From Mycolicibacterium mengxianglii (GTDB lineage: Bacteria > Actinomycetota > Actinomycetes > Mycobacteriales > Mycobacteriaceae), in assembly GCF_015710575.1 (NCBI RefSeq), contig NZ_CP065373.1, forward strand, positions 124,001 to 188,000: 64,000 bases of DNA, in the 5' to 3' direction. A program made the position numbers and the translations under genes. The notes below the pieces were generated by a model that saw only the letters and a list, made by a program, of their open reading frames with translations, had not been told where the DNA came from and made no database searches. Positions 14,747-28,527 of the stretch are shown here, piece after piece (position 1 is the first letter of the stretch; the number at the start of each line of letters is the position of its first letter).

Positions 14747-15580
14747 TCAGGGGCACAGCTGGAAGTGGTACCCCGGCTCGGACGGGGCGACGAGGTCGCG
14801 GTCACGCAGGACCATCGATGTCACGGCGTCGGGGGCGGTGCACATCTGCCCGAACGGCCGGGGGAGGTTGTCGGTGTACTCGACGTCCACCACGTGGTCG
14901 CCGTAAACGCTGGTGTAGCTGGCGCATTCGTCGTAGGCGGCGCACTCTTCGGCGACGGCGAAATCGAATCCGGCTCCCTGCAGCACCGGTGCGTCCTCGG
15001 CGGCATTTTTCTGCGCTGCCGCGAGGCCGACGCCGTGCGCGGTCGACGTCAGGTCGCGTGCCAGCGCCACGGCGTCGTCACGCGTCACCAGACCGCCTGT
15101 GCGGGTGTAGCTGTCGAGATTGTCGAATTCGACTGCGTTGTAACCTTTGTCGGCGCAGTCGCTGATCCACGGGCTGACGACGCCGCGGATTGTCTCGCGC
15201 TGCTCCGGCGTGCGGGTGTCCAGCAGCACTTCGTCGGGCCAGTCCGGGTCGTGCACGAGGGAACCGTCGCTGTCGCGCAGGAGCACTTCGTCGGGCCAGG
15301 AGCCGGACTCGCCCGGCTGGGTCTGGAACGCGTTGACGTAACAGATCGCGTACCTGCCCTCGGGTGGCATCGCCGTGCGATCGCGGGCCACGATCGTGAC
15401 CTGGCTGTTCGGCGGGTACGCCTCGCCGAGTTGATAGTCGGGTGCGCCACCGGCCGGCGGCAGTGTGATCGGTGATGCGGAGGCCGGCGCGGATCCGACA
15501 GCCAGGATCGCGACCAGTGCCGCCGTGATGCTCACCGCCGACACGAATAGCCGTGGGATTTCAACCGTGGTCTTCGACAT
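14747..15580 (-). CDS. Secreted GH114-like endo-alpha-1,4-polygalactosaminidase family protein
   Basis: A 277-residue protein with an N-terminal signal peptide (hydrophobic core VSAVSITAALVAILAVG, probable cleavage after ASAS). The body resembles the TIM-barrel GH114 family: ICYVNAFQTQPG early, GYNAVEFDNLDSY carrying the acidic residues in the middle, and AEECAAYDEC later. GH114 enzymes cut galactosaminogalactan-type polymers. Bacterial roles are mostly unknown. The phrase WPDEVLL occurs twice 19 residues apart, encoded by an 18-bp exact direct repeat (15225-15242, 15282-15299). The ATG overlaps the end of the GntR gene by 20 bp, suggesting coupling to that gene. Confidence 0.75.
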   Translation of the reverse strand: MSKTTVEIPRLFVSAVSITAALVAILAVGSAPASASPITLPPAGGAPDYQLGEAYPPNSQVTIVARDRTAMPPEGRYAICYVNAFQTQPGESGSWPDEVLLRDSDGSLVHDPDWPDEVLLDTRTPEQRETIRGVVSPWISDCADKGYNAVEFDNLDSYTRTGGLVTRDDAVALARDLTSTAHGVGLAAAQKNAAEDAPVLQGAGFDFAVAEECAAYDECASYTSVYGDHVVDVEYTDNLPRPFGQMCTAPDAVTSMVLRDRDLVAPSEPGYHFQLCP

Positions 15581-16247
15581 CCTTGAGCCCCCTGTTCTTG
15601 ACGCCGTGCAGATGATTGACCATCGCTTGCCGCGCCTTCTCCGGTGAGTGATCCCGGAATGCGGTCAGGATCGCGGTGTGCTCGTCGATGGTGTTCTCGG
15701 CGTCGGTGACCCCGAGACCGGTGAAGAGTCGGAACCGTTGCACCGACCCGCCGAGGCAGTTGTAGGCCATCAGCAGAAAACGGTTGCCGGCGCCTTCGGC
15801 GATGAGCTCATGGAATCGCATGTCGGCCTGCCAGTAGTCCCGGTACTCGGCGAACTCGGGGCCCCTCGGGGCGGTACGCAGGTCGGTGATCGAACGGTCA
15901 AGTGCTTCAATGAGTTCGGGCGTGGCCCGCTCGCAGGCGTGCGTCGCGTTGACCGGCTCGATGACCAGGCGGGCGTCCATCAACTCGGCGAGTTCGGCGG
16001 TGGTGAGCAGTGGCGCGACACGGTAGCCGCGTAGCGCCACCCGGTTCACGAGGCCGGTTACTTCGAGCCGGGCGAGGGCTTCGCGAACGGGAGTCGCCGA
16101 AACGTCGAGTTCGCGGGCGATGCCGTCGATGCTCAGCGCATCATTGGGCTCGTAGCGGCCGTCCATCAGCAGTTCGAGCAACTTGTCGTGAACGTGGTCG
16201 GTCAGAACCTGCCGGACCAGTCGAGAACCGACGCCTTGGGAGACCAC
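15561..16247 (-). CDS. GntR family transcriptional regulator (FCD/FadR type)
   Basis: A 228-residue regulator. The winged helix-turn-helix is seen at about residues 12-77 (VHDKLLELLMDGRYEPNDAL, ELDVSATPVREALARLEVTG), followed by an all-helical FCD ligand domain with RFHELIAEGAGNRFL and EHTAILTAFRDH, where metal-binding acidic and His residues are expected. FCD regulators usually sense organic acids or sugar acids. It is divergent from the kinase operon at 16406, and a duplicated palindrome lies between them, so it very likely controls that operon. The start is GTG 16247. Confidence 0.9.
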   Translation of the reverse strand: MVSQGVGSRLVRQVLTDHVHDKLLELLMDGRYEPNDALSIDGIARELDVSATPVREALARLEVTGLVNRVALRGYRVAPLLTTAELAELMDARLVIEPVNATHACERATPELIEALDRSITDLRTAPRGPEFAEYRDYWQADMRFHELIAEGAGNRFLLMAYNCLGGSVQRFRLFTGLGVTDAENTIDEHTAILTAFRDHSPEKARQAMVNHLHGVKNRGLKDVEDHG

Positions 16248-16405: not shown

Positions 16406-18193
16406 GTGACTTCGATCTACGACGACCCCGCAGTGTTCGCGGACGAGTCGCTTGACGGTTTCGTCGCCGCCAATCGTCAATACGTCGATCGACTCGATGG
16501 CGGCGTGGTCCGCTCCACCCGATCGTCTCCTGGCCACGTCGCTGTCGTCATCGGTGGCGGATCGGGGCACTACCCCGCGTTCGCCGGCCTGGTGGGCACA
16601 GGCTTGGCCACCGCATCCGCTTGCGGGAACACCTTCGCCTCACCTTCTGCCGGCCAGATCTACCGAGTGGCGAAGGCGGCGGACATGGGCGGCGGCGTTC
16701 TCTTCAGCTACGGCAACTATGCGGGCGACGTCATGCACTTCAACCAGGCGCAAGTGCGGCTCAGAGGTGAGGGTATCGACGCCCGCACAGTGCGGGTCAC
16801 CGACGACATCGCCAGCGCTCCGCCCGACCAGCGCCACGATCGCCGCGGCGTCGCGGGCGATCTGACCGTCTTCAAGGTCGCCGGGGCGGCGGCCGAAGCG
16901 GGAAAATCGATCGACGACGTTGAGCGGCTGGCCCGGAAAGCCAATGACCGCACCCGATCTCTGGGCGTGGCCTTCGGAGGCTGCACCCTGCCGGGCCAAG
17001 CGTCACCCCTGTTCTCGATCCCTGCGGGAAAGATGTCGGTCGGCCTGGGAATCCACGGCGAACCCGGCATCTTCGATCTGAACATGCCCACGGCGACCGA
17101 CCTGGCCGAACTCTTGGTCAGTCGGCTACTGGCGGAGCGCCCCGATGACGCGGGTAGTGCCGTAGTGCCCATCGTCAACGGCCTGGGCACCGCGAAGTAC
17201 GACGAGCTGTTCCTGCTGTACGGCAAGGTCGAGAAGATCTTGACCGCCCACGGACTGCGCATCGTCGAACCGGAGTGCGGTGAGTTGGTCACCAGCCTGG
17301 ATATGCCGGGGCTGTCCCTGACCTTGTTCTGGCCCGACGACGAACTCGCCGAATACTGGTCTGCGCCGGCCGACACGCCCGCCTACCGCAAGAGCGCGGT
17401 CGACACACAGGCCCGGCGTGTCGCTGCCCCGCACCGTCACGCCGTCGCCCACGGCGAACCGGCAACCGCGGAGGCTGTCCGACTCGGACACCTTGCCGCC
17501 GTCGCGCTCCGCGCGATCGGCACTGTGGTCGCTACGAACGAAGATGCCTGGGGCAAGCTCGATTCCGTCGCCGGTGACGGCGATCACGGTATGGGCATGC
17601 GACGCGGAGTCGACGCCGCATGTGCGGCGGCGGATGCGGCCGCGGGCACCGGGGTACACAACATCCTCAGCTGCGCCGGTGAAGCCTGGAGCGAGAGAGC
17701 CGGTGGCACGTCGGGTGCGCTATGGGGAACCGGGTTGATCCAGGTGGGCAACGCTTTTGGGAACAAAGACACCTACTCGGCGATCGACGTCGTGTCGGCG
17801 GTGCGCGCCTTCGCCGCCGCCGTCACCGATTTGGGCAGCGCCGATGTCGGCGACAAGACCATGGTGGACGCCATTGTCCCCTTCGTCGAGTCGCTCACCG
17901 CGGACCTCGATCATGGTGTAGGCCTTGGTCCATCGTTGATCGGGGCAGCGGCGGCGGCAAAGCGCGCCGCCGATGCCACAGCGGCGCTTCGACCGAGGCT
18001 GGGCCGTGCCCGGCCGCTGGCAGAGAAGAGCCTCGGGCATCCCGACCCCGGCGCGGTGTCGTTCGCCGACATCGTCGGGGGCTTGGCCGGCATTGTTCCC
18101 TCTGTCGACGTCAGTGCCCGCGGCCCGACCGGGAAAGCCCCACTTCAGAGTTCCGACGTACCAGGCCCGCGAGATCGAGGTGTGACGGCATGA
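16406..18193 (+). CDS. Dihydroxyacetone-kinase-family kinase (DhaK-DhaL fusion), probable erythrulose kinase
   Basis: A 595-residue ATP-dependent ketose kinase. The DhaK half (about 1-330) shows GGGSGHYPAFAGLVGTGL and GLGIHGEPGIF with His217, which forms the covalent hemiaminal with the keto substrate. The DhaL half (about 360-570) shows GDGDHGMGMRRG, binding ADP-Mg. Homologues in mycobacteria act on dihydroxyacetone or on L- or D-erythrulose (LerK/DerK of M. smegmatis tetritol pathways). With a triosephosphate-isomerase homologue in the same operon, L-erythrulose 1-kinase is the favoured guess. The stop overlaps the next start by 4 bp (ATGA). Confidence 0.88.
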   Translation: MTSIYDDPAVFADESLDGFVAANRQYVDRLDGGVVRSTRSSPGHVAVVIGGGSGHYPAFAGLVGTGLATASACGNTFASPSAGQIYRVAKAADMGGGVLFSYGNYAGDVMHFNQAQVRLRGEGIDARTVRVTDDIASAPPDQRHDRRGVAGDLTVFKVAGAAAEAGKSIDDVERLARKANDRTRSLGVAFGGCTLPGQASPLFSIPAGKMSVGLGIHGEPGIFDLNMPTATDLAELLVSRLLAERPDDAGSAVVPIVNGLGTAKYDELFLLYGKVEKILTAHGLRIVEPECGELVTSLDMPGLSLTLFWPDDELAEYWSAPADTPAYRKSAVDTQARRVAAPHRHAVAHGEPATAEAVRLGHLAAVALRAIGTVVATNEDAWGKLDSVAGDGDHGMGMRRGVDAACAAADAAAGTGVHNILSCAGEAWSERAGGTSGALWGTGLIQVGNAFGNKDTYSAIDVVSAVRAFAAAVTDLGSADVGDKTMVDAIVPFVESLTADLDHGVGLGPSLIGAAAAAKRAADATAALRPRLGRARPLAEKSLGHPDPGAVSFADIVGGLAGIVPSVDVSARGPTGKAPLQSSDVPGPRDRGVTA

Positions 18194-19140
18194 CAGTTCA
18201 GATCGCAGTAATCGGCTCCGGGTACATGGGCGGCGGTATTGCGCAGGTGTTCGGCCTCGCCGGAGCCCGCGTCGCCCTCGCCGACGTCAGCGCGGAGATC
18301 GCCGAGAAGAACTACCACCGGTTGATCGCCGAATCACAGGAGTTCGTCGCCGAGGGACTCTTCCCCGAGGGTGCCACCGCGACCCTGGAGGAAAACCTGT
18401 GGCCGGCCGCGTCATTGGCCGAGGCGGTGCGCGACGCCGATTTCATCGAGGAAGCCGTTCCAGAAGTCCTGGCGATCAAGACCGACATCCTCAGCCAGAT
18501 CAGCGCAGCCGCGAAACCGGACGCCATCATCGGGTCCAACACCTCGACGATTTCCATTGGCGATATGACCGGTGCCGTCACCAATGCAGGGCGATTCCTC
18601 GGGGTGCACTTCAGTAACCCGTCCCCGTTCATCCCCGGCGTCGAGATCATTCCACACGCCGGTACCGATGAGACCGTCGTGGCGCGGGCACGTCAACTCA
18701 TCCACGATGCCGGCAAGTCGACCGCCCAGGTGAAGGATGTCACCGGATTCGTGTTGAACCGGTTGCAGTACGCGCTCTTTCACGAAGCAACCCAGTTGGT
18801 CGAAGACGGCACCGCGACCGCCGAGGACATCGACACCCTGGTGCGCACCACCTTCGGCTTCCGACTCCCGTTCTTCGGTCCATTCGCCATCGCCGACATG
18901 GCCGGCCTGGACGTCTACGACTTCTGCTACCGGTCTCTGCAAACCGGGTTTCCCGATCGGTTCGCGACACCGCGGGTGCTCTCGGAACTGGTTGCGGCGG
19001 GCAAGCTCGGGACCAAGACCGGCTCGGGATTCTTGAACGTCCCGACGGAGCGCATCCCCGAACTGATCGCCTACCGCAACAAGGCCTATGTGCTGATGCA
19101 GAAACTGCTCGATGAGCTCGGGCCCGCTCCCCTCGCGTAG
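18190..19140 (+). CDS. 3-hydroxyacyl-CoA dehydrogenase family NAD-dependent oxidoreductase
   Basis: A 316-residue two-domain dehydrogenase. The NAD site is GSGYMGGGIAQVF at the N-terminus, the catalytic His lies in VHFSNPSPFIPG, and the helical C-domain contains TGFVLNRLQYALFHEA. The motif after the His differs from the HFFNP of true fatty-acid enzymes. The same family contains L-gulonate 3-dehydrogenase, which oxidises the C3 hydroxyl of a sugar acid. In this operon, C3 oxidation of a sugar acid to a beta-keto acid is more plausible than a fatty-acid role; that is inference. It is coupled to the kinase by a 4-bp overlap. Confidence 0.85.
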   Translation: MTVQIAVIGSGYMGGGIAQVFGLAGARVALADVSAEIAEKNYHRLIAESQEFVAEGLFPEGATATLEENLWPAASLAEAVRDADFIEEAVPEVLAIKTDILSQISAAAKPDAIIGSNTSTISIGDMTGAVTNAGRFLGVHFSNPSPFIPGVEIIPHAGTDETVVARARQLIHDAGKSTAQVKDVTGFVLNRLQYALFHEATQLVEDGTATAEDIDTLVRTTFGFRLPFFGPFAIADMAGLDVYDFCYRSLQTGFPDRFATPRVLSELVAAGKLGTKTGSGFLNVPTERIPELIAYRNKAYVLMQKLLDELGPAPLA

Positions 19141-19183
19141 GGACCATCGACCACCGCCACGATCCCGAACAGGAGCACCGCGC

Positions 19184-19291
19184 ATGCGTACTGACGGCTC
19201 GTCACGGTGGACCCGCGATCGACTGCTGTATCTGACCATCGGCTTGATCATCTGTGGTGTCGGGGTGGCTCTGATCCTCACGTCACGTTAG
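19184..19291 (+). CDS. 35-residue single-pass membrane peptide
   Basis: ATG 19184 to TAG 19291 encodes a 35-residue peptide with a charged N-terminus (MRTDGSSRWTRDR), one membrane helix (LLYLTIGLIICGVGVALIL) and a short TSR tail. AGGAG lies about nine bases before the ATG. It sits in the 208-bp gap between the dehydrogenase and the transporter, in the same direction as the operon. Orientation by the positive-inside rule would place the N-terminus in the cytosol. No family is recognised. It may associate with the transporter encoded next; that is a guess. Confidence 0.6.
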   Translation: MRTDGSSRWTRDRLLYLTIGLIICGVGVALILTSR

Positions 19292-19348
19292 AGATCAAAA
19301 TCACCGGCCACACCCGCTGTGTTGCAACATCATTCGACAGGAGAAGCG

Positions 19349-20698
19349 ATGTCAACGGTAGACCTCACCACAAGTAAGGAACTGTTGCGCGACCCGGTTC
19401 TCGCATCGGCGATCTCCAAGGCCTCGCGCCGGTTGATGCCGATGCTGGTCATCCTCTACATCGTCTCGTTTCTCGACCGCACCAACGTCGGCTTCGCCGC
19501 GGATGCGCTCGAGGTGGACCGCGGGGTGTCCGCAGGTGCTTATGCCCTGGGCGCGGGGATCTTCTTCATCGGATACGCGATATTCGAGATCCCGAGCAAC
19601 CTGATCCTCAACCGGGTCGGGGCGAAGTTCTGGTTGGCCCGGATCGCCATCACCTGGGGAATCGTTTCGGCGTCCTTTGCCTTCGTGCAAGGCCCGAACA
19701 GCTTCATCGCACTCCGGTTTCTGCTGGGTGTGACCGAGGCCGGCCTGTTTCCCGGGGTGATCATGTTTCTTGCCGCCTGGTTCCCGAACAAGGTGCGGGT
19801 CAAGATGTTTGCCATCTTCTATCTGGCCCAGCCCGTGTCCCAGATGCTGGGGGCACCATTGTCCGGGTGGTTGATCAACATCGGTGACCAGATGCCGGGC
19901 GTGCACGGCTGGCAGGTCATGTTCGCGGTCGAGGGGTTGTTGGCCGTGCTGGCAGGAGTTGCCGCCTTCGTCTTCCTCATCAACGGGCCCGACCAAGCGA
20001 AGTTCCTGACAACCGCCGAGAGGAAAGCTCTCAAAGATGTCATGGCACAGGAAGACACGGTGAAGGAACAGACCGGTCCCAGTGGCGTGTGGAACGCGAT
20101 GAAGAACGGCAAGGTCTGGTACTTCACCACCATCTACTTCTGCATGCAGGTGGCCGTCTACGGGGTGACTTTCTACCTGCCGACGCAGGTGTCGGACCTC
20201 ACCGGGACCAAGGTGGGGCTGAAAGTCGGTCTCCTGGTCGCTGTCCCGTGGTTCTTCGGCATCTTCGCGTGTTACCTGATCGGACGCGCGGCCACCACGA
20301 TCCAGCGGCGACGCATCTGGGCAACCCTGCTGTTCATCTCGACCGGGTTGTGCATCTTCGGATCTGCGTGGGCGGGGACATACCACCAACCAGTACTGGG
20401 GCTGATCTTCATCACCCTGGCGGTCTGCAGCTTCCTCGGTGTCGGCCCCATCGTCTGGTCCTACCCCACGGCATTCCTGACCGGAGCGGCCGCGGCAGCC
20501 GGTATCGGTCTGATCAATTCGCTGGGCAACCTGGGTGGTTTCATCGCCCCCATTCTGCGGACCAAGGTCAATTCCGTCGTCGACGACGCTGCGGGCTCGG
20601 CCGGCATCTACGCACTGGGCGTCCTGCCGCTGGTCGCGGCCGCGATGATCTTCTACACCCGCAGGTTCCGCGTCAAGGCCGACGAGCTACTCGACTGA
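19349..20698 (+). CDS. MFS transporter, anion:cation symporter (ACS) family
   Basis: A 449-residue protein with about 12 membrane segments. The sequence ILYIVSFLDRTNVGFAADAL near helix 1 and GYAIFEIPSNLILNRVGAKFW are diagnostic of the ACS family, whose members import organic anions such as galactonate, glucarate, tartrate or phthalate. ATG 19349 follows AGGAG and is preferred to the upstream in-frame start at 19319. As the only transporter of the operon it should bring in the pathway substrate, which argues for an acidic sugar derivative rather than a neutral tetritol. Confidence 0.9.
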   Translation: MSTVDLTTSKELLRDPVLASAISKASRRLMPMLVILYIVSFLDRTNVGFAADALEVDRGVSAGAYALGAGIFFIGYAIFEIPSNLILNRVGAKFWLARIAITWGIVSASFAFVQGPNSFIALRFLLGVTEAGLFPGVIMFLAAWFPNKVRVKMFAIFYLAQPVSQMLGAPLSGWLINIGDQMPGVHGWQVMFAVEGLLAVLAGVAAFVFLINGPDQAKFLTTAERKALKDVMAQEDTVKEQTGPSGVWNAMKNGKVWYFTTIYFCMQVAVYGVTFYLPTQVSDLTGTKVGLKVGLLVAVPWFFGIFACYLIGRAATTIQRRRIWATLLFISTGLCIFGSAWAGTYHQPVLGLIFITLAVCSFLGVGPIVWSYPTAFLTGAAAAAGIGLINSLGNLGGFIAPILRTKVNSVVDDAAGSAGIYALGVLPLVAAAMIFYTRRFRVKADELLD

Positions 20699-20779
20699 CG
20701 TAAACGCGCTCCCGGCCGGTGCCGGTCAGGGATTCGCTTTCCGCTCAGACCTTTCCGCACATCCGCAAGGAGACCACGA

Positions 20780-21733
20780 ATGACGATCGGCGAGACCGAA
20801 CCGCTCACCGCGCAGAATTGGCCGATCGCGGCGGCAATGATCAATTTCCCGTCGGTGCTACCGGATGGAACCACTACCCAGGACCAGAGCGCCGAAGGCT
20901 GGGCCGCGACTCTCGAGCAAGTTGCCGACGCCGGGTTCACCGAGGTGGATCCCACTGATTCCTGGCTCCGGATCGCGGACCTCAGTTCTGAACGGCTGCA
21001 GGAATTCCAGGATGTCGTCAAGAGTGCCGGCCTGACCATCCCCGCGATCTCCACGGCGCGGCGCAGCGTCGTCGACCCGGAGTTCGGAGAGGCCTACCTG
21101 ACCTACGGGCACCGGGTGATCGACACCGCAGCGGCCATCGGCGCCACCGTGGTGTCCTTCGGATTCTTCCGCGCCCTGAACCCTGCGCAACAGGCTGCGC
21201 TGTGGTTCTGGACCGTTCAGGGCCCGGTGGATTCGGCTGACCCCGACGACTGGCGGCTCGCTGTTCGGCGCACGCGCGAACTGGGGGAGCACGCCGCGCA
21301 GGTGGGCGTCGCCATCTCGCTGGAGATGTACGAAGACACCTATCTCGGGTCAGCAGACAGTTCGGTGCGGTTCGTCCGCGACGTGGACCACCCGGCGGTT
21401 GGCCTCAATCCTGACCTGGGCAACCTGCAGCGCTTGCACAGACCCGTCGAACGATGGGAAGTGATGGCGGAGAAGACACTTCCTTACGTGAATTACTGGC
21501 ATGTCAAGAATTACCTCCGCACCGAGGACGGCACCAGCGGTGCCATTGTCACCGCACCAGCCCCCATGGAGCTGGGAGTCATCAACTATCGCAAGGCGGT
21601 GCGGATGGCCATCGACGGCGGCTTCAGGGGCGCTTTCTGCACCGAGCACTACGGGGGCGACGGACTCAGCGTCAGCGCAACCAACCGGGAGTACCTGCGG
21701 CGAATACTGCCCAAGGTGATGACGAGCCCATGA
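20780..21733 (+). CDS. Sugar phosphate isomerase/epimerase-like TIM-barrel protein
   Basis: A 317-residue protein of the xylose-isomerase-like/AP-endonuclease-2 barrel family. Candidate metal ligands are the acidic and His residues in ISLEMYEDTYLGS, VGLNPDLGN, NYWHVKNYL and FCTEHYGGD, arranged in the usual order of the fold. The family includes epimerases, isomerases and decarboxylases, among them 3-oxo-isoapionate decarboxylase, which yields L-erythrulose. Given the kinase and isomerase beside it, a decarboxylase producing erythrulose is proposed but not shown. It has a good AAGGAG ribosome site and lies 81 bp after the transporter. Confidence 0.8.
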   Translation: MTIGETEPLTAQNWPIAAAMINFPSVLPDGTTTQDQSAEGWAATLEQVADAGFTEVDPTDSWLRIADLSSERLQEFQDVVKSAGLTIPAISTARRSVVDPEFGEAYLTYGHRVIDTAAAIGATVVSFGFFRALNPAQQAALWFWTVQGPVDSADPDDWRLAVRRTRELGEHAAQVGVAISLEMYEDTYLGSADSSVRFVRDVDHPAVGLNPDLGNLQRLHRPVERWEVMAEKTLPYVNYWHVKNYLRTEDGTSGAIVTAPAPMELGVINYRKAVRMAIDGGFRGAFCTEHYGGDGLSVSATNREYLRRILPKVMTSP

Positions 21734-21756
21734 TCGACCAAAGATGGATGACTTGA

Positions 21757-22530
21757 ATGCACCGCCCGGCCACCATCGGGATCAGCCTGAAAATGTATAT
21801 GGGCTACGAACAGACGGCCCTATGGTGCACACGAATCGCTGAGATCGCCGACGCGCACCCCGCGATAGCGGGAGGCCTCGCGCAGCTCTTTGTGCTCCCC
21901 AGCTTTCCCGCCATCCCGCGCTGTGTCGAAATCTTCGCCGGTCGCGGTGTCGACGTGGGCGCCCAGAATCTGTTCTGGGAGGATGCCGGCGCCTTCACGG
22001 GAGAGGTCAGCGGGAGGATGCTGTTGGAGATGGGATGTTCCTACGTTGAAGTCGGGCACGCGGAACGGCGCCGGATCTTCGGGGAGTCAGACCGCATAGT
22101 GGCCGCGAAAACAGTTGCGGCACTGCGTAACGGCCTCACGCCTGTGGTGTGCGTAGGAGAGCCGGTGCGGATGACACCCGAGGAGGCCGCGGTATCCTGT
22201 ATCCGCGATGTGGATGCCGTGGTCGCTGCGGCTGGGCTCATGCCCGCATCCTTGGTCGTGGCATACGAGCCGCAATGGGCCATCGGGGCCGCAGACCCCG
22301 CGCCCGTGGACTACATCCAGCAGGTGTGCCGGACCATCAGCGGCTGGCTGGCTGGGCAACCCAACGCGACGGGCAGCCGAATCGTTTACGGAGGAAGTGC
22401 CGGGCCCGGACTGCTGAGTCAGTTGGGGGACGCAGTTGACGGGTTGTTCCTGGGGCGCCGCGCACACGACCCAGGTGCGGTGGTTTCCATTCTGGACGAG
22501 GTGGCCGTTTCGGCGAGGGCGGCGAAGTAG
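21757..22530 (+). CDS. Divergent triosephosphate isomerase, probable L-erythrulose-1-phosphate isomerase
   Basis: A 257-residue TIM homologue. The catalytic residues are all present: Lys12 (ISLKMYM), His101 (EVGHAERR) and Glu171 (AYEPQWAIG), with the phosphate loop YGGSAGPG. The sequence departs from housekeeping TpiA (SLKMYM for NWKMN, GHAERR for GHSERR), as do LerI/EryH enzymes, which convert L-erythrulose 1-phosphate to D-erythrulose 4-phosphate. Being next to a DhaK-type kinase supports that role. The ATG at 21757 lacks a clear ribosome site, but later starts would lose Lys12. Confidence 0.85.
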   Translation: MHRPATIGISLKMYMGYEQTALWCTRIAEIADAHPAIAGGLAQLFVLPSFPAIPRCVEIFAGRGVDVGAQNLFWEDAGAFTGEVSGRMLLEMGCSYVEVGHAERRRIFGESDRIVAAKTVAALRNGLTPVVCVGEPVRMTPEEAAVSCIRDVDAVVAAAGLMPASLVVAYEPQWAIGAADPAPVDYIQQVCRTISGWLAGQPNATGSRIVYGGSAGPGLLSQLGDAVDGLFLGRRAHDPGAVVSILDEVAVSARAAK

Positions 22531-22562: not shown

Positions 22563-23465
22563 CTACTTGCTGAAGCCCGCCGTCAGCCCGCTGACCAGCT
22601 GGCGCCGGCCCACGGCGTAGAGCACGATGACCGGGAAGGTGCTGAGCACGACGGAGGCCATGACCGCGGGCACGTTGACGCTGTACTGGCCCTGAAATGT
22701 CCACAGTGCCAGGGGTAGGGTGCGCTGGTCCGGGCTCTGCGTCAGGATCAACGGCAACAAGAATCCGTTCCACACCGTCAGGCCGTTGTACACCGCCACT
22801 GTCACCAGAGCCGGCCGGGCCAACGGGAAAGCCAGCTGCCACATCGATGCCCACTCGCTGGCGCCGTCCATACTCATCGACTCGAACAGTTCCTTGGGCA
22901 CATCCCGGATGAAGTTCGCCAGGACCAGCACCGACAACGGGATCGCAAACGCTATGGAGGGCAGGATGATTGCCAGCAGGGTGTCATACAGTTGCAGCCT
23001 GATGATGATCAGATAGACCGGAATGACCACAGCTTGCAACGGAATGGCCAGCCCGGACAGGAACACCATGTTCGCCAAACGGAGAAATCGTCCGTTGCCT
23101 CGCACGATCGCGTACGCCGCCATGAAGGCGAGCAAGATCGTCGGCACCACCGTACCGACCGCCACGATGACGCTGTTGAGGAAGTAGCGCGGGAAGTCCG
23201 ACTGGGCCACGAATTCGTACTGGTCGAAATTCGACTCCGGCGAGGGCAGCAACGGGTTGGTGGCGAAGTAGTTGCTCTGGCTTTTCAAGCTGGTGATCAC
23301 GATCCAGTAGATCGGGACCATCACCACCGCCAGCCAGAGGAACGCAATCAGCGCGCCGACCCAGTTCGGCCGTTCGCCACGGTATGTCCGTGCCCGTCGT
23401 CGGGCCCTCGGCCGCTGCGGTGGGGGCGCGGTTCGGCTGGCCGGGCTGGTCATGGTCGCCGACAT
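22563..23465 (-). CDS. Carbohydrate ABC transporter permease (MalG type)
   Basis: A 300-residue inner-membrane permease with six predicted helices. The cytoplasmic EAA loop is seen as ELFESMSMDGASEWASMWQLAFPLARPAL, where it contacts the ATPase. The C-terminus ends VSGLTAGFSK, typical of MalG-like sugar permeases. It is the last gene of a binding-protein/permease/permease operon, one base after the preceding stop. ATG 23465 is used; an in-frame ATG at 23453 is an alternative. The operon has no ATPase gene, so a shared MsiK/SugC-type ATPase must energise it. Confidence 0.92.
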   Translation of the reverse strand: MSATMTSPASRTAPPPQRPRARRRARTYRGERPNWVGALIAFLWLAVVMVPIYWIVITSLKSQSNYFATNPLLPSPESNFDQYEFVAQSDFPRYFLNSVIVAVGTVVPTILLAFMAAYAIVRGNGRFLRLANMVFLSGLAIPLQAVVIPVYLIIIRLQLYDTLLAIILPSIAFAIPLSVLVLANFIRDVPKELFESMSMDGASEWASMWQLAFPLARPALVTVAVYNGLTVWNGFLLPLILTQSPDQRTLPLALWTFQGQYSVNVPAVMASVVLSTFPVIVLYAVGRRQLVSGLTAGFSK

Positions 23466-23466
23466 C

Positions 23467-24387
23467 TCAGGCTCCGTCCAACTGGCTGTCCGAGGGCGTT
23501 CCCCCGCCGAGACGGCGCAGCAGCAGGGCCACCGCCAGACCGACGAGCACCAGGATGACGGCGATCACGCTGGCCGGGCCCATCAGGTTGGCCTGGAAGC
23601 CGCGTCGGTACATGTCGAGTGCGAGCACCCGGGTGGCGTCGCCCGGCCCGCCCGCGGTCAGGACGAAGATCAGGTCGAAGAACGTCAGCGAGCCGATCAC
23701 CATGAGCGTCGACGACGTGACGATCGTGTAGCGCAATTGCGGCAGCGTGATGGAGAAGAACTGGCGGCACCGGCCGGCGCCGTCCAGCTGTGCGGCCTCA
23801 TACATCGAACGCGGAATCTGCTGGATGGCACCCTGATAGATCAGTGAGTGCAGCGGCACGAACTGCCAGGACACCATGAAGATGACGACTCCGAGGGCCA
23901 AGCCGCCGCGGCCGAGCCAATCCTGGCTCAGTAGCGGCATGCCCAGCCCGACGCCGAGGCCGAAGTTGGGGTCCAGCAAGGCCTTGTAGGTGATCGCGAT
24001 GGCCGCCGAGCTGAGCAACAGCGGGATGAAATACAGCACCGCGAGCCATTCCCGGTAGCGCTGACGTCCGGCAAGAAAGGCTCCGATGACCAAGCTGGCC
24101 GGGGTCTGGACCGCCCACGACAGCACCATCAACAGAAAGGTCACCCAAATCGAATGCGGTAACCCGGGATCGGTCAGGACCGACCTCCAGCTGTCGAGGC
24201 CGGCCGGATGGATGGCGCCGATGCCGTCCCACTGGGTGAAGCTCAGCAGCAGCACGCCGAGTAGCGGAATCACCGCGAAGGCAACAAAAAAGACCAGCGC
24301 GGGCAGCGCCAGGAGGGCGACCCGGTTGTCGCGGACTGAGCGCGGAACCGGTTGCCGATGGCTGAACCCCGGTAGCGCAAGGGTCAT
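23467..24387 (-). CDS. Carbohydrate ABC transporter permease (MalF type)
   Basis: A 306-residue permease with about six helices. The EAA loop reads SMYEAAQLDGAGRCRQFFSITLPQL, and LIFVLTAGGPGDATRVLALDMYRRGF is typical of MalF/UgpA-like sugar permeases. ATG 24387 overlaps the stop of the binding-protein gene by 4 bp (ATGA). It pairs with the MalG-type permease to form the channel. The sugar is inferred from the divergent GH3 and GH1 genes to be a beta-linked glucoside oligomer. Confidence 0.92.
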   Translation of the reverse strand: MTLALPGFSHRQPVPRSVRDNRVALLALPALVFFVAFAVIPLLGVLLLSFTQWDGIGAIHPAGLDSWRSVLTDPGLPHSIWVTFLLMVLSWAVQTPASLVIGAFLAGRQRYREWLAVLYFIPLLLSSAAIAITYKALLDPNFGLGVGLGMPLLSQDWLGRGGLALGVVIFMVSWQFVPLHSLIYQGAIQQIPRSMYEAAQLDGAGRCRQFFSITLPQLRYTIVTSSTLMVIGSLTFFDLIFVLTAGGPGDATRVLALDMYRRGFQANLMGPASVIAVILVLVGLAVALLLRRLGGGTPSDSQLDGA

Positions 24388-25736
24388 TTGCCGATAGCCT
24401 GATTCATGTTGTCGGCGAACTGTTGTGGTCCGATCGAGAGCTGGAACAACCTGGCGATGTTGTCGAGCAGGGTCTCGGCGGCTGTCGGTGACAGGGCCTG
24501 ATCCCACGACTGTGCGAAAACCTTGGCGTCGGTGGATACCTGGTAGATGAACTCGAGGAATTCGGCGTCCTTCGAGGCGCCCAGTTCGTTCTGCGTGCCC
24601 TGCACGATGGGAACGCTGCCGATGTCGATCCACTGCTTGACCTCGTCATCGGACAAGACCGCGGTGCTGAGGAACTTCTTGGCGGCTTCCTTCTGCTCAT
24701 CGGTGGCCTTCGAGTAGATCGACAGATACTGGGCTGGATTGCCGACCGTATCGGTCAGGTCGCCGCGGCCGCCGTCGACAGCCGGGAAGTTCATGTAGCC
24801 GAGCTTCCCGCTGGAGACGAAATCACCCCCGTCAGTAGACATTCCGCCGTACGTCCAGCTCCCGTGCAGCATCATCGCTGCCTTGCCCGTGTACAGCAGC
24901 GCCTGGTCGGCGTTGGAGTCGGCAGTGATCGAGGAGAAGCCCCTGACGAAACCGTCGGCCTTGATCAGGTCCTGCACCCTGGTCAGCGCGTCGATGGCGG
25001 CGGGGTTCGACCAGGCGTTCTGCTCGCCGTTGTACGCAGCCTCGAACACCTCGGGCCCGCCTATGCGGTCGAACAGGAACTCCAGCCACATCATTTCGGT
25101 CCACCGGGATTGCCCGCCGAGCGAGAAGGGAGCAATGCCGGCCGCGTTGAACTTCGGCACCAGATCCATGATGTCGCCCCAGCTTTGCGGTGGTGCGGCA
25201 CCCACGTTGTCGAACACCTCTTTGTTGTAATAGAGGACAACCGGTTGCACGACCTCGGCGGGCATCGCATAAATCTTGTTGTCCACCGTGGCGGGGGCGA
25301 AAGCGGTTGGAAACAACCGGTTCTTCGCCGCCGGGTTCTCGTCGAACCAGGAGGTCAGGTCATCGACCTGGCCGGCATCGACGTAGCTACGCAAGGTGCC
25401 GCCGCCCCAGCCGAAGATGAGCGTCGGCGCCTGGCCGGCACCGATCGCCGTCTTGATCTTCGTCTTGAAGGCGTCGTTCTGGAAGGCGGTGATTTGAATT
25501 TGGTTGTCCGGGTTGGCCTTGTTGAACCGGTTGACCGTGTCGGTCCGGATCCCTTCCTGCGGCTGGGAGGTGAGGAACCAGTAGGAGGCCGATCCGACCC
25601 CGCCGCCACCGGAGTCGCCGGGCCTGCTGGGTCCTGAGCTCCCGCAAGCGGCCAGGGCGCCCAGGGCGGGCGCAGCGAGTGCGGCGGCCAGGAAGGTCCG
25701 ACGCGTTGTGGTGAAGTCGACGGTTGTGAAGTCCAC
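24384..25736 (-). CDS. Sugar ABC transporter substrate-binding lipoprotein with Tat-type signal
   Basis: A 450-residue extracytoplasmic binding protein. The N-terminus shows TTRRTFLAAALAAPALGAL, a twin-arginine motif, followed directly by the lipobox LAAC, so it is likely Tat-exported and lipid-anchored. The body has the bacterial solute-binding 1 fold: NKANPDNQIQITAFQNDAFK, MPAEVVQPVVLYYNKEVFD, LLYTGKAAMMLHGSWTYGG. GTG 25736 is chosen over the open frame reaching 25898 because GGAG precedes it and it places the signal at the N-terminus. It is the first gene of the importer operon, beginning 103 bp from an operator-like palindrome. Confidence 0.9.
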   Translation of the reverse strand: MDFTTVDFTTTRRTFLAAALAAPALGALAACGSSGPSRPGDSGGGGVGSASYWFLTSQPQEGIRTDTVNRFNKANPDNQIQITAFQNDAFKTKIKTAIGAGQAPTLIFGWGGGTLRSYVDAGQVDDLTSWFDENPAAKNRLFPTAFAPATVDNKIYAMPAEVVQPVVLYYNKEVFDNVGAAPPQSWGDIMDLVPKFNAAGIAPFSLGGQSRWTEMMWLEFLFDRIGGPEVFEAAYNGEQNAWSNPAAIDALTRVQDLIKADGFVRGFSSITADSNADQALLYTGKAAMMLHGSWTYGGMSTDGGDFVSSGKLGYMNFPAVDGGRGDLTDTVGNPAQYLSIYSKATDEQKEAAKKFLSTAVLSDDEVKQWIDIGSVPIVQGTQNELGASKDAEFLEFIYQVSTDAKVFAQSWDQALSPTAAETLLDNIARLFQLSIGPQQFADNMNQAIGK

Positions 25737-25838
25737 GCTCAGCTCCGTACGTGAAAGCCGCGCCGTCGCGGCTTGTCGGTCATCCGAGGCGGGCATCGCG
25801 GGTCCGGGAGGTCGCCGTTGCTGTCGCGAGGCGAGGGC

Positions 25839-25852
25839 CCGAAATATTTCGA
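25839..25852. promoter_or_regulatory. LacI-type operator candidate, importer side
   Basis: The core palindrome CGAAATATTTCG (25840-25851) is a perfect 12-bp inverted repeat identical to the core at 26027-26038. It lies about 100 bp before the binding-protein start in the 337-bp divergent region. The regulator is presumably the LacI protein encoded at 28520. The rest of the divergent region is AT-richer than its surroundings and contains no gene. Confidence 0.7.
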
Positions 25853-26025
25853 CGGTGGCCGCAAACTCACGGTATATTTTCGGTTTTGTGGATGTCAATA
25901 GCGTGTTTTATTTGGCATGGACAACCGCACCTGGCCGGGGGCAGTTATGGCAAATGCATTGTTGGCACGACTTTTTAGTGCTAGGACGTTAGTGTCGACT
26001 TTTGTCCACGGCCTCCGAAAATAAA

Positions 26026-26039
26026 TCGAAATATTTCGA
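26026..26039. promoter_or_regulatory. LacI-type operator candidate, glucosidase side
   Basis: TCGAAATATTTCGA is a perfect 14-bp palindrome 34 bp before the GTG start of the GH3 gene. It shares 13 of 14 bases with the element at 25839-25852, 187 bp away. Two identical operators flanking a divergent promoter region suggest cooperative or looping repression. Confidence 0.7.
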
Positions 26040-26073
26040 ATACGGATGGCCGTCGAGTTGGAAGGACTGTCCC

Positions 26074-28527
26074 GTGACGCCAACACAACCGGCCGAGCAG
26101 ACCACTGCTGCCGCGGGGCCGGATACCCGGCCGTGGCAGGACACGGCGCTTCCGGCAGCCGAGCGGGTTGAACTCCTACTGGCCGAACTGAGCCTCGAGG
26201 AGAAAGTCGCCCAACTGGGCAGCCGTTGGGTCGGTAACGACAGGCAAGGTGGCGAAGAAGGCCGGGACACCAACGACTTTGACGGGCAGGGTGCCGAAGC
26301 CGTCAACAATGTCGCGCCGATGGAGAACGTCTTCGCGCTCTCCGGCGGCGTCACGTTGCGTGACGCGGCCAGAAACGGGCTGGGGCACCTCACGCGCATC
26401 TATGGCAGTAGACCCCTCACGCCGGCCGAGGGTGCCGCCGAACTGATCAGCCAGCAGCGGACCGTGCTCGAGCAGTCCCGGCTGGACATTCCCGCCCTCG
26501 TGCACGAGGAGTGTCTGACCGGCTTCACCGCGTACGGCGCGACGGTATACCCCGCGGCAATTGCGTGGGGCGCCACCTTCGACCCACTCCTGGTGCAGGA
26601 GATGGCCGCCGCGATCGGCGCTGATATGGCCGCCGTCGGTGTGCACCAAGGACTCTCGCCGGTACTCGATGTCGTCCGCGACTACCGCTGGGGCCGGGTC
26701 GAGGAGACGATGGGTGAGGATCCCTACGTCGTGGCCACACTCGGCGCGGCGTATGTCCGCGGGCTGCAGAGCGCGGGTGTGATCGCCACCCTCAAGCACT
26801 TCGCCGGTTACTCCGCGTCCCGCGCGGGACGCAACCACGGGCCGGTACCGATGGGCAGGCGCGAGCTCTTCGACGTGATCTTCCCGCCGTTCGAGGTCGC
26901 GGTCACCGTCGTCGGGGCGGGCTCGGTGATGAGTGCCTACCACGACGTGGACGGAATCCCGGCGTCCGCGGACCCCTGGCTGCTCACCGAAATTCTGCGC
27001 GGGCACTGGGATTTCGCCGGCACTGTGGTCTCCGATTACTGGTCGGTGCCGTTCCTGTCGATGATGCACCGCGTGGCGGCGGACGCCGAGGAGTCCGGGG
27101 TGGCAGCGCTGGCCGCCGGCGTCGACGTCGAGCTGCCGGATACCGTCGGTTTCGGAGGCCTCACCGAACGGGTGCGCAACGGCGACCTACCCGAGGAACT
27201 GGTTGACCGGGCAGTGCGTCGGCTGCTGCTGCAGAAGGTGCAGCTCGGTCTGCTGGACCCGGACTGGACCCCGGAAGCGTCGGTGGCGAACGCCTCCGGT
27301 GTCGACCTGGACTCGCCGGCCAACCGCGACCTCGCGCGGCGGCTGGCCGAACGCTCCATTGTGCTGCTCGACGAAGGCACTGCGCTGCCCCTCGGCGGTG
27401 CCGGTCGTCCCGTGGCCGATCGGATTGCCGTCGTCGGCCCGTGCGCAGCGGACCCGCGAACCTTCATGGGCTGCTACGCCTTTCCCAACCACGTGTTGCC
27501 GCGCTATCCGGGGCGCGGACTCGGCGTGCCGGTGGCTACCGTGGTGGAGGCCCTGGAACACGAACTCACCGACGCGCAGATCCGTTACGAGCAGGGCTGC
27601 CCGGTTCAGGGCACCGACCGCTCCGGGTTCGCTGCCGCGGTCGAAGCCGCTGCGTCCGCGGATCTCTGTATCGCCGTGGTCGGTGATCTCGCCGGACTCT
27701 TCGGTCATGGTTCCTCCGGCGAGGGATGTGACGCGGCGGATCTGCAACTTCCCGGTGTCCAGGCCGACCTACTCGAGGCGCTCCTGAACACTGGCGTTCC
27801 TGTTGTGGTGGTGGTGGTTTCGGGCCGTCCGTACGCACTCGGCGCCGTGGCGGGCCGGGCGGCCGGGCTGATCCAGGCGTTCATGCCCGGGGAGGAAGGC
27901 GGTGCGGCCATCGCGGGAGTGCTGTCCGGACGTGTTCAGCCCGGCGGCAAGCTGCCGGTTCAGATTCCGCGAATCCCGGGCGGCCAGCCCGGCACGTACC
28001 TGCAGCCCCCACTGGGCACGCAGGATGCCGGTATCAGCAGCATCGATCCCACCCCGCTGTTCCCGTTCGGGTACGGGCGCAGCTACACCACCTTCGAACT
28101 GGATGACCTGCGGATCAGTGCTGACAGCGTGCCCACCGACGGAGAGTTCACCGTATCCGTGCGGGTCCGCAACACCGGGTCCCGCGCCGGAGACGAAGTG
28201 GTGCAGATCTACCTGGAAGACCCGGTGGCGTCGGTGGTACGCCCGGCCCGGCAGCTCATCGGCTACGCGCGCGTGACCGTGCCGGTTGCGGGTGCGGTCA
28301 TCGTGAGCTTCACAGTGCACGCCGACCGCACGGCGTTCACCGGGCGGGACCTCGACCGGATCGTGGAGGCGGGTCAGCTGGAGCTGCTGGTGGGCACCTC
28401 GGTCACCGACGTGCCCTGTCGCGGCACCGTCTGGCTGACCGGCGCCACCCGCGTGGTCGGTGCCGACCGCGCCCTGCTCACCCCGGTGGTCGTCACCGCC
28501 GCTCCCCAGGTCAATGCCCATGGCTGA
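26074..28527 (+). CDS. Glycoside hydrolase family 3 beta-glucosidase
   Basis: An 817-residue GH3 enzyme with the three usual domains: a TIM-like barrel, an alpha/beta sandwich and a C-terminal fibronectin-III-like domain (from about residue 680, FTVSVRVRNTGSRAGDEVVQ). The nucleophile Asp321 lies in TVVSDYWS, and substrate-binding residues are in LKHFAGYSASRAGRNH. There is no signal peptide, so it acts in the cytosol on imported oligosaccharides. GTG 26074 has GAAGGA upstream; the frame is open to 26002 but would run through the operator. It overlaps the lacI start by 8 bp. Confidence 0.93.
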   Translation: MTPTQPAEQTTAAAGPDTRPWQDTALPAAERVELLLAELSLEEKVAQLGSRWVGNDRQGGEEGRDTNDFDGQGAEAVNNVAPMENVFALSGGVTLRDAARNGLGHLTRIYGSRPLTPAEGAAELISQQRTVLEQSRLDIPALVHEECLTGFTAYGATVYPAAIAWGATFDPLLVQEMAAAIGADMAAVGVHQGLSPVLDVVRDYRWGRVEETMGEDPYVVATLGAAYVRGLQSAGVIATLKHFAGYSASRAGRNHGPVPMGRRELFDVIFPPFEVAVTVVGAGSVMSAYHDVDGIPASADPWLLTEILRGHWDFAGTVVSDYWSVPFLSMMHRVAADAEESGVAALAAGVDVELPDTVGFGGLTERVRNGDLPEELVDRAVRRLLLQKVQLGLLDPDWTPEASVANASGVDLDSPANRDLARRLAERSIVLLDEGTALPLGGAGRPVADRIAVVGPCAADPRTFMGCYAFPNHVLPRYPGRGLGVPVATVVEALEHELTDAQIRYEQGCPVQGTDRSGFAAAVEAAASADLCIAVVGDLAGLFGHGSSGEGCDAADLQLPGVQADLLEALLNTGVPVVVVVVSGRPYALGAVAGRAAGLIQAFMPGEEGGAAIAGVLSGRVQPGGKLPVQIPRIPGGQPGTYLQPPLGTQDAGISSIDPTPLFPFGYGRSYTTFELDDLRISADSVPTDGEFTVSVRVRNTGSRAGDEVVQIYLEDPVASVVRPARQLIGYARVTVPVAGAVIVSFTVHADRTAFTGRDLDRIVEAGQLELLVGTSVTDVPCRGTVWLTGATRVVGADRALLTPVVVTAAPQVNAHG

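What the first reader, a model, noticed from the sequence alone, without database searches (positions are those of the whole stretch)
16406..22530. Candidate sugar-acid to erythrulose phosphate pathway operon
One directional operon holds a DhaK-DhaL kinase, a 3-hydroxyacyl-CoA-dehydrogenase-family enzyme, an anion-type (ACS) transporter, a xylose-isomerase-like barrel protein and a divergent TIM with all catalytic residues. Known: DhaK-type LerK and TIM-type LerI/EryH act on L-erythrulose and its phosphate; L-gulonate 3-dehydrogenase belongs to the 3HCDH family; 3-oxo-isoapionate decarboxylase belongs to the barrel family. Inference: oxidation of a C5 sugar acid at C3, decarboxylation to erythrulose, phosphorylation and isomerisation to erythrulose 4-phosphate. 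I do not know of this gene combination described in mycobacteria. The final isomerase (RpiB/EryI type) is missing from the window.
Basis: partly seen in the sequence, partly recalled or inferred. Interest (0 to 1): 0.75.

Follow-up and report, generated by a model that had tools for sequence, protein, structure and literature searches.

The report
Sugar-acid to erythrulose-phosphate operon in a mycobacterium
A mycobacterium carries a self-regulated set of genes that most likely turns an unidentified five-carbon sugar acid into the four-carbon sugar L-erythrulose and then into a phosphate of central metabolism, by a front end that differs from the known apionate route.

Summary
Observation confirmed: a GntR/FCD regulator faces DhaK-DhaL kinase, 3HCDH-family dehydrogenase, ACS-type MFS carrier, PF01261 barrel and divergent TIM. 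(1) The TIM is not a glycolytic copy: it groups (100/100) with TIMs of two apionate-type clusters and shares with Brucella EryH (PDB 11ef) a Ser at the TIM Asn10 position and Gly-Arg in loop 8. (2) A second TIM tracks the barrel: 12 of 12 barrel genomes in the genus sample against 2 of 136 others, and 36 of 36 further barrel genomes that I chose. (3) The 'missing' RpiB-type isomerase is near the barrel in at least 7 of 11 other barrel genomes of the genus sample and, here, at 2.87 Mb in a tetritol-like operon. (4) The dehydrogenase keeps the 3HCDH catalytic residues but lacks basic CoA-contacting residues. (5) ATCCTATAGGA occurs twice in the whole genome, both before this operon. The layout mirrors the apionate route, with 3HCDH plus a distinct barrel in place of the ApnO/OiaC-like pair; D-apionate itself is unlikely. 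Best guess: L-pentonate, L-erythrulose, its 1-phosphate, D-erythrulose 4-phosphate, erythrose 4-phosphate. New variant of a known kind.

The parts
15561..16247 (-). GntR/FCD-family regulator, divergent to the operon
   Evidence: Pfam GntR 54.8 bits and FCD 100.1 bits; a GntR of about 50% identity also stands beside the barrel in L100-L103
16254..16264 (.). operator-like palindrome ATCCTATAGGA, copy 1
   Evidence: only 2 exact copies in 5.96 Mb; same palindrome in the cluster region of L015, L016, L100-L103
16301..16311 (.). operator-like palindrome ATCCTATAGGA, copy 2
   Evidence: two copies also in L015 and L016
16406..18193 (+). DhaK-DhaL kinase, proposed L-erythrulose 1-kinase (LerK type)
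   Evidence: PF02733, PF02734; NF011049 702.7 bits over cut-off 492; GGGSGHYPAF, GIHGEPG and GDGDHG motifs
18190..19140 (+). 3HCDH-family dehydrogenase, proposed sugar-acid 3-dehydrogenase
   Evidence: PF02737, PF00725; catalytic Ser/His/Asn kept, CoA-contacting Lys positions Glu/Glu/Leu
19184..19291 (+). 35-aa ORF with one hydrophobic stretch, function unknown
   Evidence: sequence; similar peptide at the same place in L015 and L016
19349..20698 (+). MFS carrier of the anion:cation symporter (ACS) type, proposed sugar-acid uptake
   Evidence: PF07690, TIGR00893 268 bits (below the family cut-off)
20780..21733 (+). PF01261 xylose-isomerase-like barrel, proposed 3-oxo-sugar-acid decarboxylase
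21757..22530 (+). [quoted passage not shown]
   Evidence: PF00121; 11ef 128.7 bits, third in the list; signatures; tree

Best explanation
The operon is a catabolic unit for a sugar acid, most likely a straight-chain L-pentonate (or another acid with a secondary alcohol at C3). Proposed steps: MFS uptake; NAD-dependent oxidation at C3 by the 3HCDH-family enzyme; metal-assisted decarboxylation of the 3-oxo acid by the PF01261 barrel to L-erythrulose; phosphorylation at C1 by DhaK-DhaL; isomerisation of L-erythrulose 1-phosphate to D-erythrulose 4-phosphate by the divergent TIM; final isomerisation to D-erythrose 4-phosphate by an RpiB-type enzyme, encoded near the barrel in many relatives and at 2.87 Mb here. 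The GntR/FCD regulator probably controls only this operon through the two ATCCTATAGGA palindromes. Shown here: gene content, operator, TIM clade and residues, second-TIM co-occurrence, loss of CoA-contact residues. Inferred: every enzyme reaction, the carbon number and the stereochemistry.
For: TIM: clade of 10 rows (7 distinct), support 100/100, with TIMs of the apionate-type clusters L154/L155; Ser at the Asn10 position in 19 of 20 distinct second-type TIMs and Gly-Arg in loop 8 in 20 of 20, against Asn in 9 of 9 and Gly-Arg in 0 of 9 glycolytic TIMs; one of the second-type rows, L118, matches PDB 11ef 'L-erythrulose-1-phosphate isomerase' at 541 bits. Co-occurrence: second TIM in 12/12 barrel genomes against 2/136 others in the genus sample, Fisher 6e-16 without correction for kinship; two or more TIM matches in 8/8 and 28/28 further barrel genomes chosen by me; background 8 of 118 in the class, at least two of the 8 bearing the barrel. 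Layout of L154/L155: MFS-DhaKL-RpiB-TIM-barrel-ApnO-like. P9-64: L016 holds the dehydrogenase-MFS-barrel part without kinase or TIM, and the genome's only second TIM stands in the apionate-type cluster L154 with DhaKL and RpiB. Acid-type carriers (TctA 35, DctM 7, MFS 20 of 80 loci; GntP in L100-L103). 3HCDH without CoA-contact lysines.
Against: No activity or growth data. The barrel's best characterised fold neighbours are ketose 3-epimerases and IolE, not decarboxylases. In many relatives the dehydrogenase near the barrel is PdxA-like (42 of 80) or DenD-like (26 of 80; the one tested passes the D-erythronate dehydrogenase cut-off, 370 over 325 bits), which would suit a C4 acid and dihydroxyacetone. 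TIM near the barrel: only 8 of 80 loci; among the 63 with 4.5 kb held downstream, 6 of 11 same-strand 3HCDH loci against 2 of 52 others, so 5 of 11 lack it. RpiB is absent from the stretches fetched for L102 and L104. 18 of 80 loci carry none of the labels TctA, DctM, MFS. ApnO/OiaC/LerK names for cluster genes are recalled, not tested. Co-occurrence counts are not corrected for kinship, and rhizobia and Brucella may carry EryH for erythritol anyway.
Confidence: 0.6

Rival explanations
1. C4 route: a tetronate (erythronate or threonate) is oxidised at C2 or C3, decarboxylated to dihydroxyacetone, phosphorylated by DhaK-DhaL to DHAP and isomerised by the TIM to glyceraldehyde 3-phosphate.
For: DenD-like (26 of 80) and PdxA-like (42 of 80) genes near barrels; the DenD-like L018 protein passes NCBIfam D-erythronate dehydrogenase; Dak family; the kinases of L023, L026, L032 and L044 carry a more DHA-kinase-like GGGSGHEPAF motif.
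Against: A specialised second TIM with EryH-type substitutions would be redundant; RpiB near the barrel has no place in this route; the window kinase has the GHYPAF motif, unlike the own-genome DhaK in L106 (GHEPLH), though this motif is not a validated marker.
Confidence: 0.17
2. The barrel is an epimerase or ketol-isomerase (2-oxo to 3-oxo acid, or D- to L-erythrulose), and decarboxylation is spontaneous or done by the dehydrogenase.
Against: A D-to-L epimerase would be a detour, since D-erythrulose can be phosphorylated and isomerised without a LerI (inference); the barrel is kept beside unlike kinds of dehydrogenase, which suits a shared later step; it shares the LExYE...HVK...EH[YW] pattern with the barrel of the apionate-type cluster (by eye).
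Confidence: 0.15
3. The dehydrogenase is a true 3-hydroxyacyl-CoA dehydrogenase and the cluster is a loose collection of sugar and fatty-acid genes.
For: Pfam and NCBIfam 3HCDH matches; CoA enzymes score close to the best match (143.4 against 149.7 bits).
Against: No Lys at the three CoA-contact positions in the window or in the 19 of 20 other cluster enzymes that have letters there (one, L092, has Arg at two), against basic residues at all three in the 3 strong own-genome matches besides the window; recurrent linkage to barrel and kinase in several phyla.
Confidence: 0.03

Closest known systems
D-apionate catabolism through 3-oxo-isoapionate to L-erythrulose (ApnO, OiaC, LerK, LerI, DerI; Carter et al. 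2018, recalled, paper not held)
   Same: ACS-type MFS, DhaK-DhaL, EryH-type TIM, RpiB and a PF01261 barrel in one cluster (L154, L155); their TIMs form one clade with the window TIM
   Different: no ApnO-like PGDH_C protein in the window operon; a 3HCDH-family dehydrogenase stands in its place; the barrel belongs to another subfamily
Erythritol and L-threitol catabolism (EltD, LerK, LerI, DerI; passages of PMC10733421 seen)
   Same: kinase and isomerase steps
   Different: starts from polyols with a polyol dehydrogenase; the window operon has neither that nor an ABC transporter of its own; a separate tetritol-like operon lies at 2.86-2.88 Mb
Brucella EryH, L-erythrulose-1-phosphate isomerase (PDB 11ef; compared through L118, 541 bits)
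   Same: TIM fold, catalytic Lys/His/Glu, Ser at the Asn10 position, Gly-Arg in loop 8
   Different: separate clade; SLKMY in place of SWKMN
PDB 5tnv, M. smegmatis PF01261 protein, no function in its title
   Same: 51% identity, Foldseek; near relatives, judged by eye (L100-L103), stand in a cluster with 3HCDH, DhaKL and TIM
   Different: those clusters use a GntP permease and a TIM of another clade
Tetronate catabolism with DenD, OtnI, DUF1537 kinase or PdxA2 (recalled)
   Same: DenD-like and PdxA-like genes occur near barrel relatives elsewhere
   Different: none of them among the window operon's proteins; Dak-type kinase instead of DUF1537

Membership tests
L-erythrulose-1-phosphate isomerase (EryH/LerI) | TIM fold with catalytic Lys, His, Glu | tested here: met
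   PF00121; residues
L-erythrulose-1-phosphate isomerase (EryH/LerI) | sequence features that set EryH apart from TpiA (Ser at the Asn10 position, Gly-Arg in loop 8) | tested here: met
   window has both; Ser in 19 of 20 distinct second-type rows (L037 has Gly), Gly-Arg in 20 of 20; 9 of 9 TpiA-type rows have Asn and none Gly-Arg
L-erythrulose-1-phosphate isomerase (EryH/LerI) | isomerisation of L-erythrulose 1-phosphate | not testable with these tools
   needs enzyme assay
L-erythrulose kinase (LerK, Dak family) | fused DhaK-DhaL with the substrate His and ADP-Mg Asp motifs | tested here: met
   (role of the motifs recalled)
L-erythrulose kinase (LerK, Dak family) | erythrulose rather than dihydroxyacetone as substrate | tested here: inconclusive
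   GHYPAF motif shared with kinases beside RpiB/TIM, but the motif is not a validated marker
OiaC (3-oxo-isoapionate decarboxylase) | membership of the barrel subfamily beside the ApnO-like gene | tested here: not met
   29% over 112 aa, E 1e-4 in a two-sequence comparison; 264 against 317 aa; the OiaC identity of that barrel is itself recalled
D-apionate pathway | ApnO-type oxidoisomerase (PGDH_C) in the cluster | tested here: not met
   no PF16896 match in the six operon proteins; present in L154 and, by similarity, L155
3-hydroxyacyl-CoA dehydrogenase | catalytic Ser, His, Asn | tested here: met
   (roles recalled)
3-hydroxyacyl-CoA dehydrogenase | basic residues that contact CoA (Lys54 and Lys56 in A2HBD, passage of PMC11476959; Lys50 recalled) | tested here: not met
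   Glu, Glu, Leu at the Lys50, Lys54, Lys56 positions of 4kug
D-tagatose 3-epimerase-like PF01261 enzymes | four metal ligands Glu, Asp, His, Glu | tested here: met
   invariant E182, D212, H241, E289 in 40 rows; assignment as ligands is by recalled pattern
D-tagatose 3-epimerase-like PF01261 enzymes | ketose 3-epimerase activity | not testable with these tools
   fold match only

The most novel reading that the evidence does not exclude
An undescribed way to break down aldonates: a 3HCDH-family aldonate 3-dehydrogenase paired with a metal-dependent PF01261 beta-keto-acid decarboxylase makes L-erythrulose. This barrel subfamily would be a shared hub fed by several unlike dehydrogenases (3HCDH, PdxA-like, DenD-like, FMN-dependent) in actinobacteria and proteobacteria, and the unassigned structure 5tnv would be its type enzyme.
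Probability: 0.4. Interest if true: 0.7.

Novelty: new variant of a known kind. Interest (0 to 1): 0.52.

Why it matters
It gives a testable function to a large PF01261 subfamily (3368 proteins at E <= 1e-30 among the 7998 candidates scored) that includes a solved structure whose title names no function (5tnv), and it suggests that L-erythrulose is a junction reached from several sugar acids, not only from apionate and tetritols. It also suggests a practical marker (EryH-type TIM residues) to tell erythrulose-phosphate isomerases from glycolytic TIMs in annotation: the EryH-like L118 passes an NCBIfam triose-phosphate isomerase cut-off (449.9 over 293 bits).

Tried and rejected
D-apionate as the window operon's substrate: rejected as unlikely because the C3 carbinol is tertiary (chemistry, own knowledge) and no ApnO-like gene is among the operon proteins. 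'Mycobacterium-specific combination': rejected, the combination is wider. Literature: searches in the held library showed no paper on this gene combination among the papers listed (14, 37 and 71 held none; others listed 30 of 1372, 10 of 84 and 15 of 210); seen as passages: PMC10733421, PMC6302742, PMC10176493, PMC11476959. Names given by sources were generic. NCBIfam had no match at E <= 1e-10 for the ApnO-like and OiaC-like proteins. The first operator pattern was mistyped and gave 0 hits, corrected. The first two gene-calling passes mis-called many ORFs in GC-rich loci (barrel found in 43 and 51 of 80 loci); maps were redone by tblastn, and the early clusters are not used for counts. The fold search did not tell decarboxylase from epimerase; families missing from its list are not excluded.
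Full report
The observation. The window is G000:C1:124001-188000 of a 5.96-Mb, single-contig genome; its genus sample includes the genome of [Mycobacterium] manitobense (G028 and L015 give the same contig place). Six genes are confirmed: regulator 15561-16247 (-), then on + DhaK-DhaL 16406-18193, 3HCDH 18190-19140, MFS 19349-20698, PF01261 barrel 20780-21733 and TIM 21757-22530. Kinase and dehydrogenase overlap by ATGA. A 35-aa ORF with a hydrophobic stretch lies at 19184-19291, and a similar peptide is found at the same place in L015 and L016.

Regulation. ATCCTATAGGA occurs exactly twice in the whole genome, both between regulator and kinase; the reversed control pattern occurs 0 times. The same palindrome is found in the cluster region of L015 and L016 (two copies each) and of the more distant L100-L103 (one each). 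The regulator therefore probably serves this one operon (inference).

Distribution. The barrel is found in 12 of 148 genomes drawn from the genus. Of 563 confirmed relatives in genome contigs the best 80 loci were kept. Within 6.5 kb of the barrel, by tblastn, of 80 loci (some cut short by contig ends): DhaKL 56, PdxA-like 42, TctA 35, DenD-like 26, 3HCDH 22 (same strand 11), MFS 20, FMN dehydrogenase 11, D-2-hydroxyacid dehydrogenase 11, TIM 8, DctM 7, RpiB 4; 18 of 80 carry none of the carrier labels TctA, DctM, MFS, and 5 none of the five dehydrogenase labels. Pfam identities of one representative each were checked. Among the 63 loci with 4.5 kb held downstream, TIM accompanies 6 of 11 same-strand 3HCDH loci and 2 of 52 others (Fisher 1.6e-4, no correction for kinship).

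The TIM. One search aligned the window TIM with TIMs from barrel clusters, from the two apionate-type clusters and from eight whole genomes. The 9 glycolytic-type rows have Asn in GNWKM and Gly-Gly (Gly-Ser in L115) in loop 8. The 20 distinct second-type rows have Ser at that place in 19 (Gly in L037) and Gly-Arg in 20. The window reads GISLKMY and DGLFLGR; the Brucella tritici second TIM L118, which matches PDB 11ef 'L-erythrulose-1-phosphate isomerase' at 541 bits, reads GTSWKMN and DGLFIGR. The tree (midpoint root for drawing) puts the window in a 10-row clade (7 distinct) at 100/100 with L154/L155, L015, two Acetobacteraceae cluster TIMs and the long-branched L037; the M. smegmatis-type clusters use a different TIM clade. 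Two TIM lineages paired with the same barrel-dehydrogenase-kinase set look like two recruitments of one function (inference; several long branches are flagged in that tree).

Co-occurrence. In the same 148 genus genomes, a second TIM is present in 12 of 12 barrel genomes and 2 of 136 others (Fisher 6e-16, not corrected for kinship; one of the two others, G121, has two TIMs of glycolytic score and 5% contamination). At least two RpiB: 12 of 12 against 26 of 136 (Fisher 2e-8). Two or more TIM matches also in 8 of 8 and 28 of 28 barrel genomes that I chose from the 80 loci; for most of the 28 the type of the second TIM was judged only from its lower score. Background: 8 of 118 genomes of the class have two or more, at least two of the 8 being barrel genomes. 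The background in alphaproteobacteria was not measured.

The missing isomerase. G011, G014, G027, G077, G082, G099 and G133 have an RpiB within about 4 kb of the barrel (the list was capped, so the others are not all seen); the stretches fetched for G009 (L102) and G028 (L104) show none. In the window's genome the two RpiB genes lie at 1.43 and 2.87 Mb; the second is next to another DhaKL, ABC-transporter genes, a zinc-type dehydrogenase and an FGGY kinase, a tetritol-like operon. No TIM lies there: the genome has two, one in the window and one at 3.10 Mb.

Comparison with the apionate layout. L154 and L155 carry MFS-DhaKL-RpiB-TIM-barrel-ApnO-like; the last, in L154, is PGDH_C with a KARI_N-like match, which I recall as the make-up of ApnO. 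Strain P9-64 has that cluster and, elsewhere, a dehydrogenase-MFS-barrel set with no kinase or TIM in its 20.9 kb (L016); its second TIM is the one in the apionate-type cluster. That suggests that both front ends feed the same erythrulose tail (inference). The window barrel and the L155 barrel share 29% over 112 aa but keep the pattern LExYE, HVK and EH[YW] (by eye).

The dehydrogenase. Catalytic Ser, His and Asn are kept; at the positions of Lys50, Lys54 and Lys56 of the butyryl-CoA enzyme 4kug it has Glu, Glu, Leu. Of 20 other cluster enzymes, 19 have letters there and none has Lys (L092 has Arg at two); two further 3HCDH rows (L025, L041; 31-33% identity) are distant and not counted. The three other strong own-genome matches (L156-L158) are basic at all three. 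PMC11476959 (passages seen) reports Lys54 and Lys56 contacting the CoA ribose and 3'-phosphate; Lys50 is recalled.

Stereochemistry (inference). A LerI-type TIM implies L-erythrulose, hence an acid with the L configuration at C4: L-arabinonate, L-ribonate, L-xylonate or L-lyxonate. D-pentonates would give D-erythrulose, whose 4-phosphate needs only the RpiB-type step.

Verdict. Observation confirmed. It is a new variant of a known kind.

Noticed in passing
window 19184-19291 (+): 35-aa ORF with a single hydrophobic stretch between dehydrogenase and carrier, with a similar peptide in L015 and L016; function unknown.
   Followed up: partly
L105 and L166 (G000:C1:2858000-2890000): Tetritol-like operon: zinc dehydrogenase, ABC transporter genes, DhaKL, RpiB, FGGY kinase, without its own TIM.
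   Followed up: partly
L017, L018, L020, L024, L030, L033, L034, L050, L052, L057 (acetic acid bacteria): The barrel stands with a DenD-like and an FMN-dependent 2-hydroxyacid dehydrogenase but no kinase within the stretch held.
   Followed up: partly
L023, L026, L032, L044: Kinases beside the barrel of another subtype (GGGSGHEPAF, GASSGPLY), possibly with a different ketose substrate.
   Followed up: no
window 22563-28527: Sugar ABC transporter genes with a binding protein on the minus strand and a large beta-glucosidase-like ORF (26002-28527, +) beside the operon; read by eye only.
   Followed up: no
window 14747-15580 (-): Secreted-looking ORF directly downstream of the regulator (its start overlaps the regulator's end), possibly co-transcribed with it; read by eye.
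   Followed up: no
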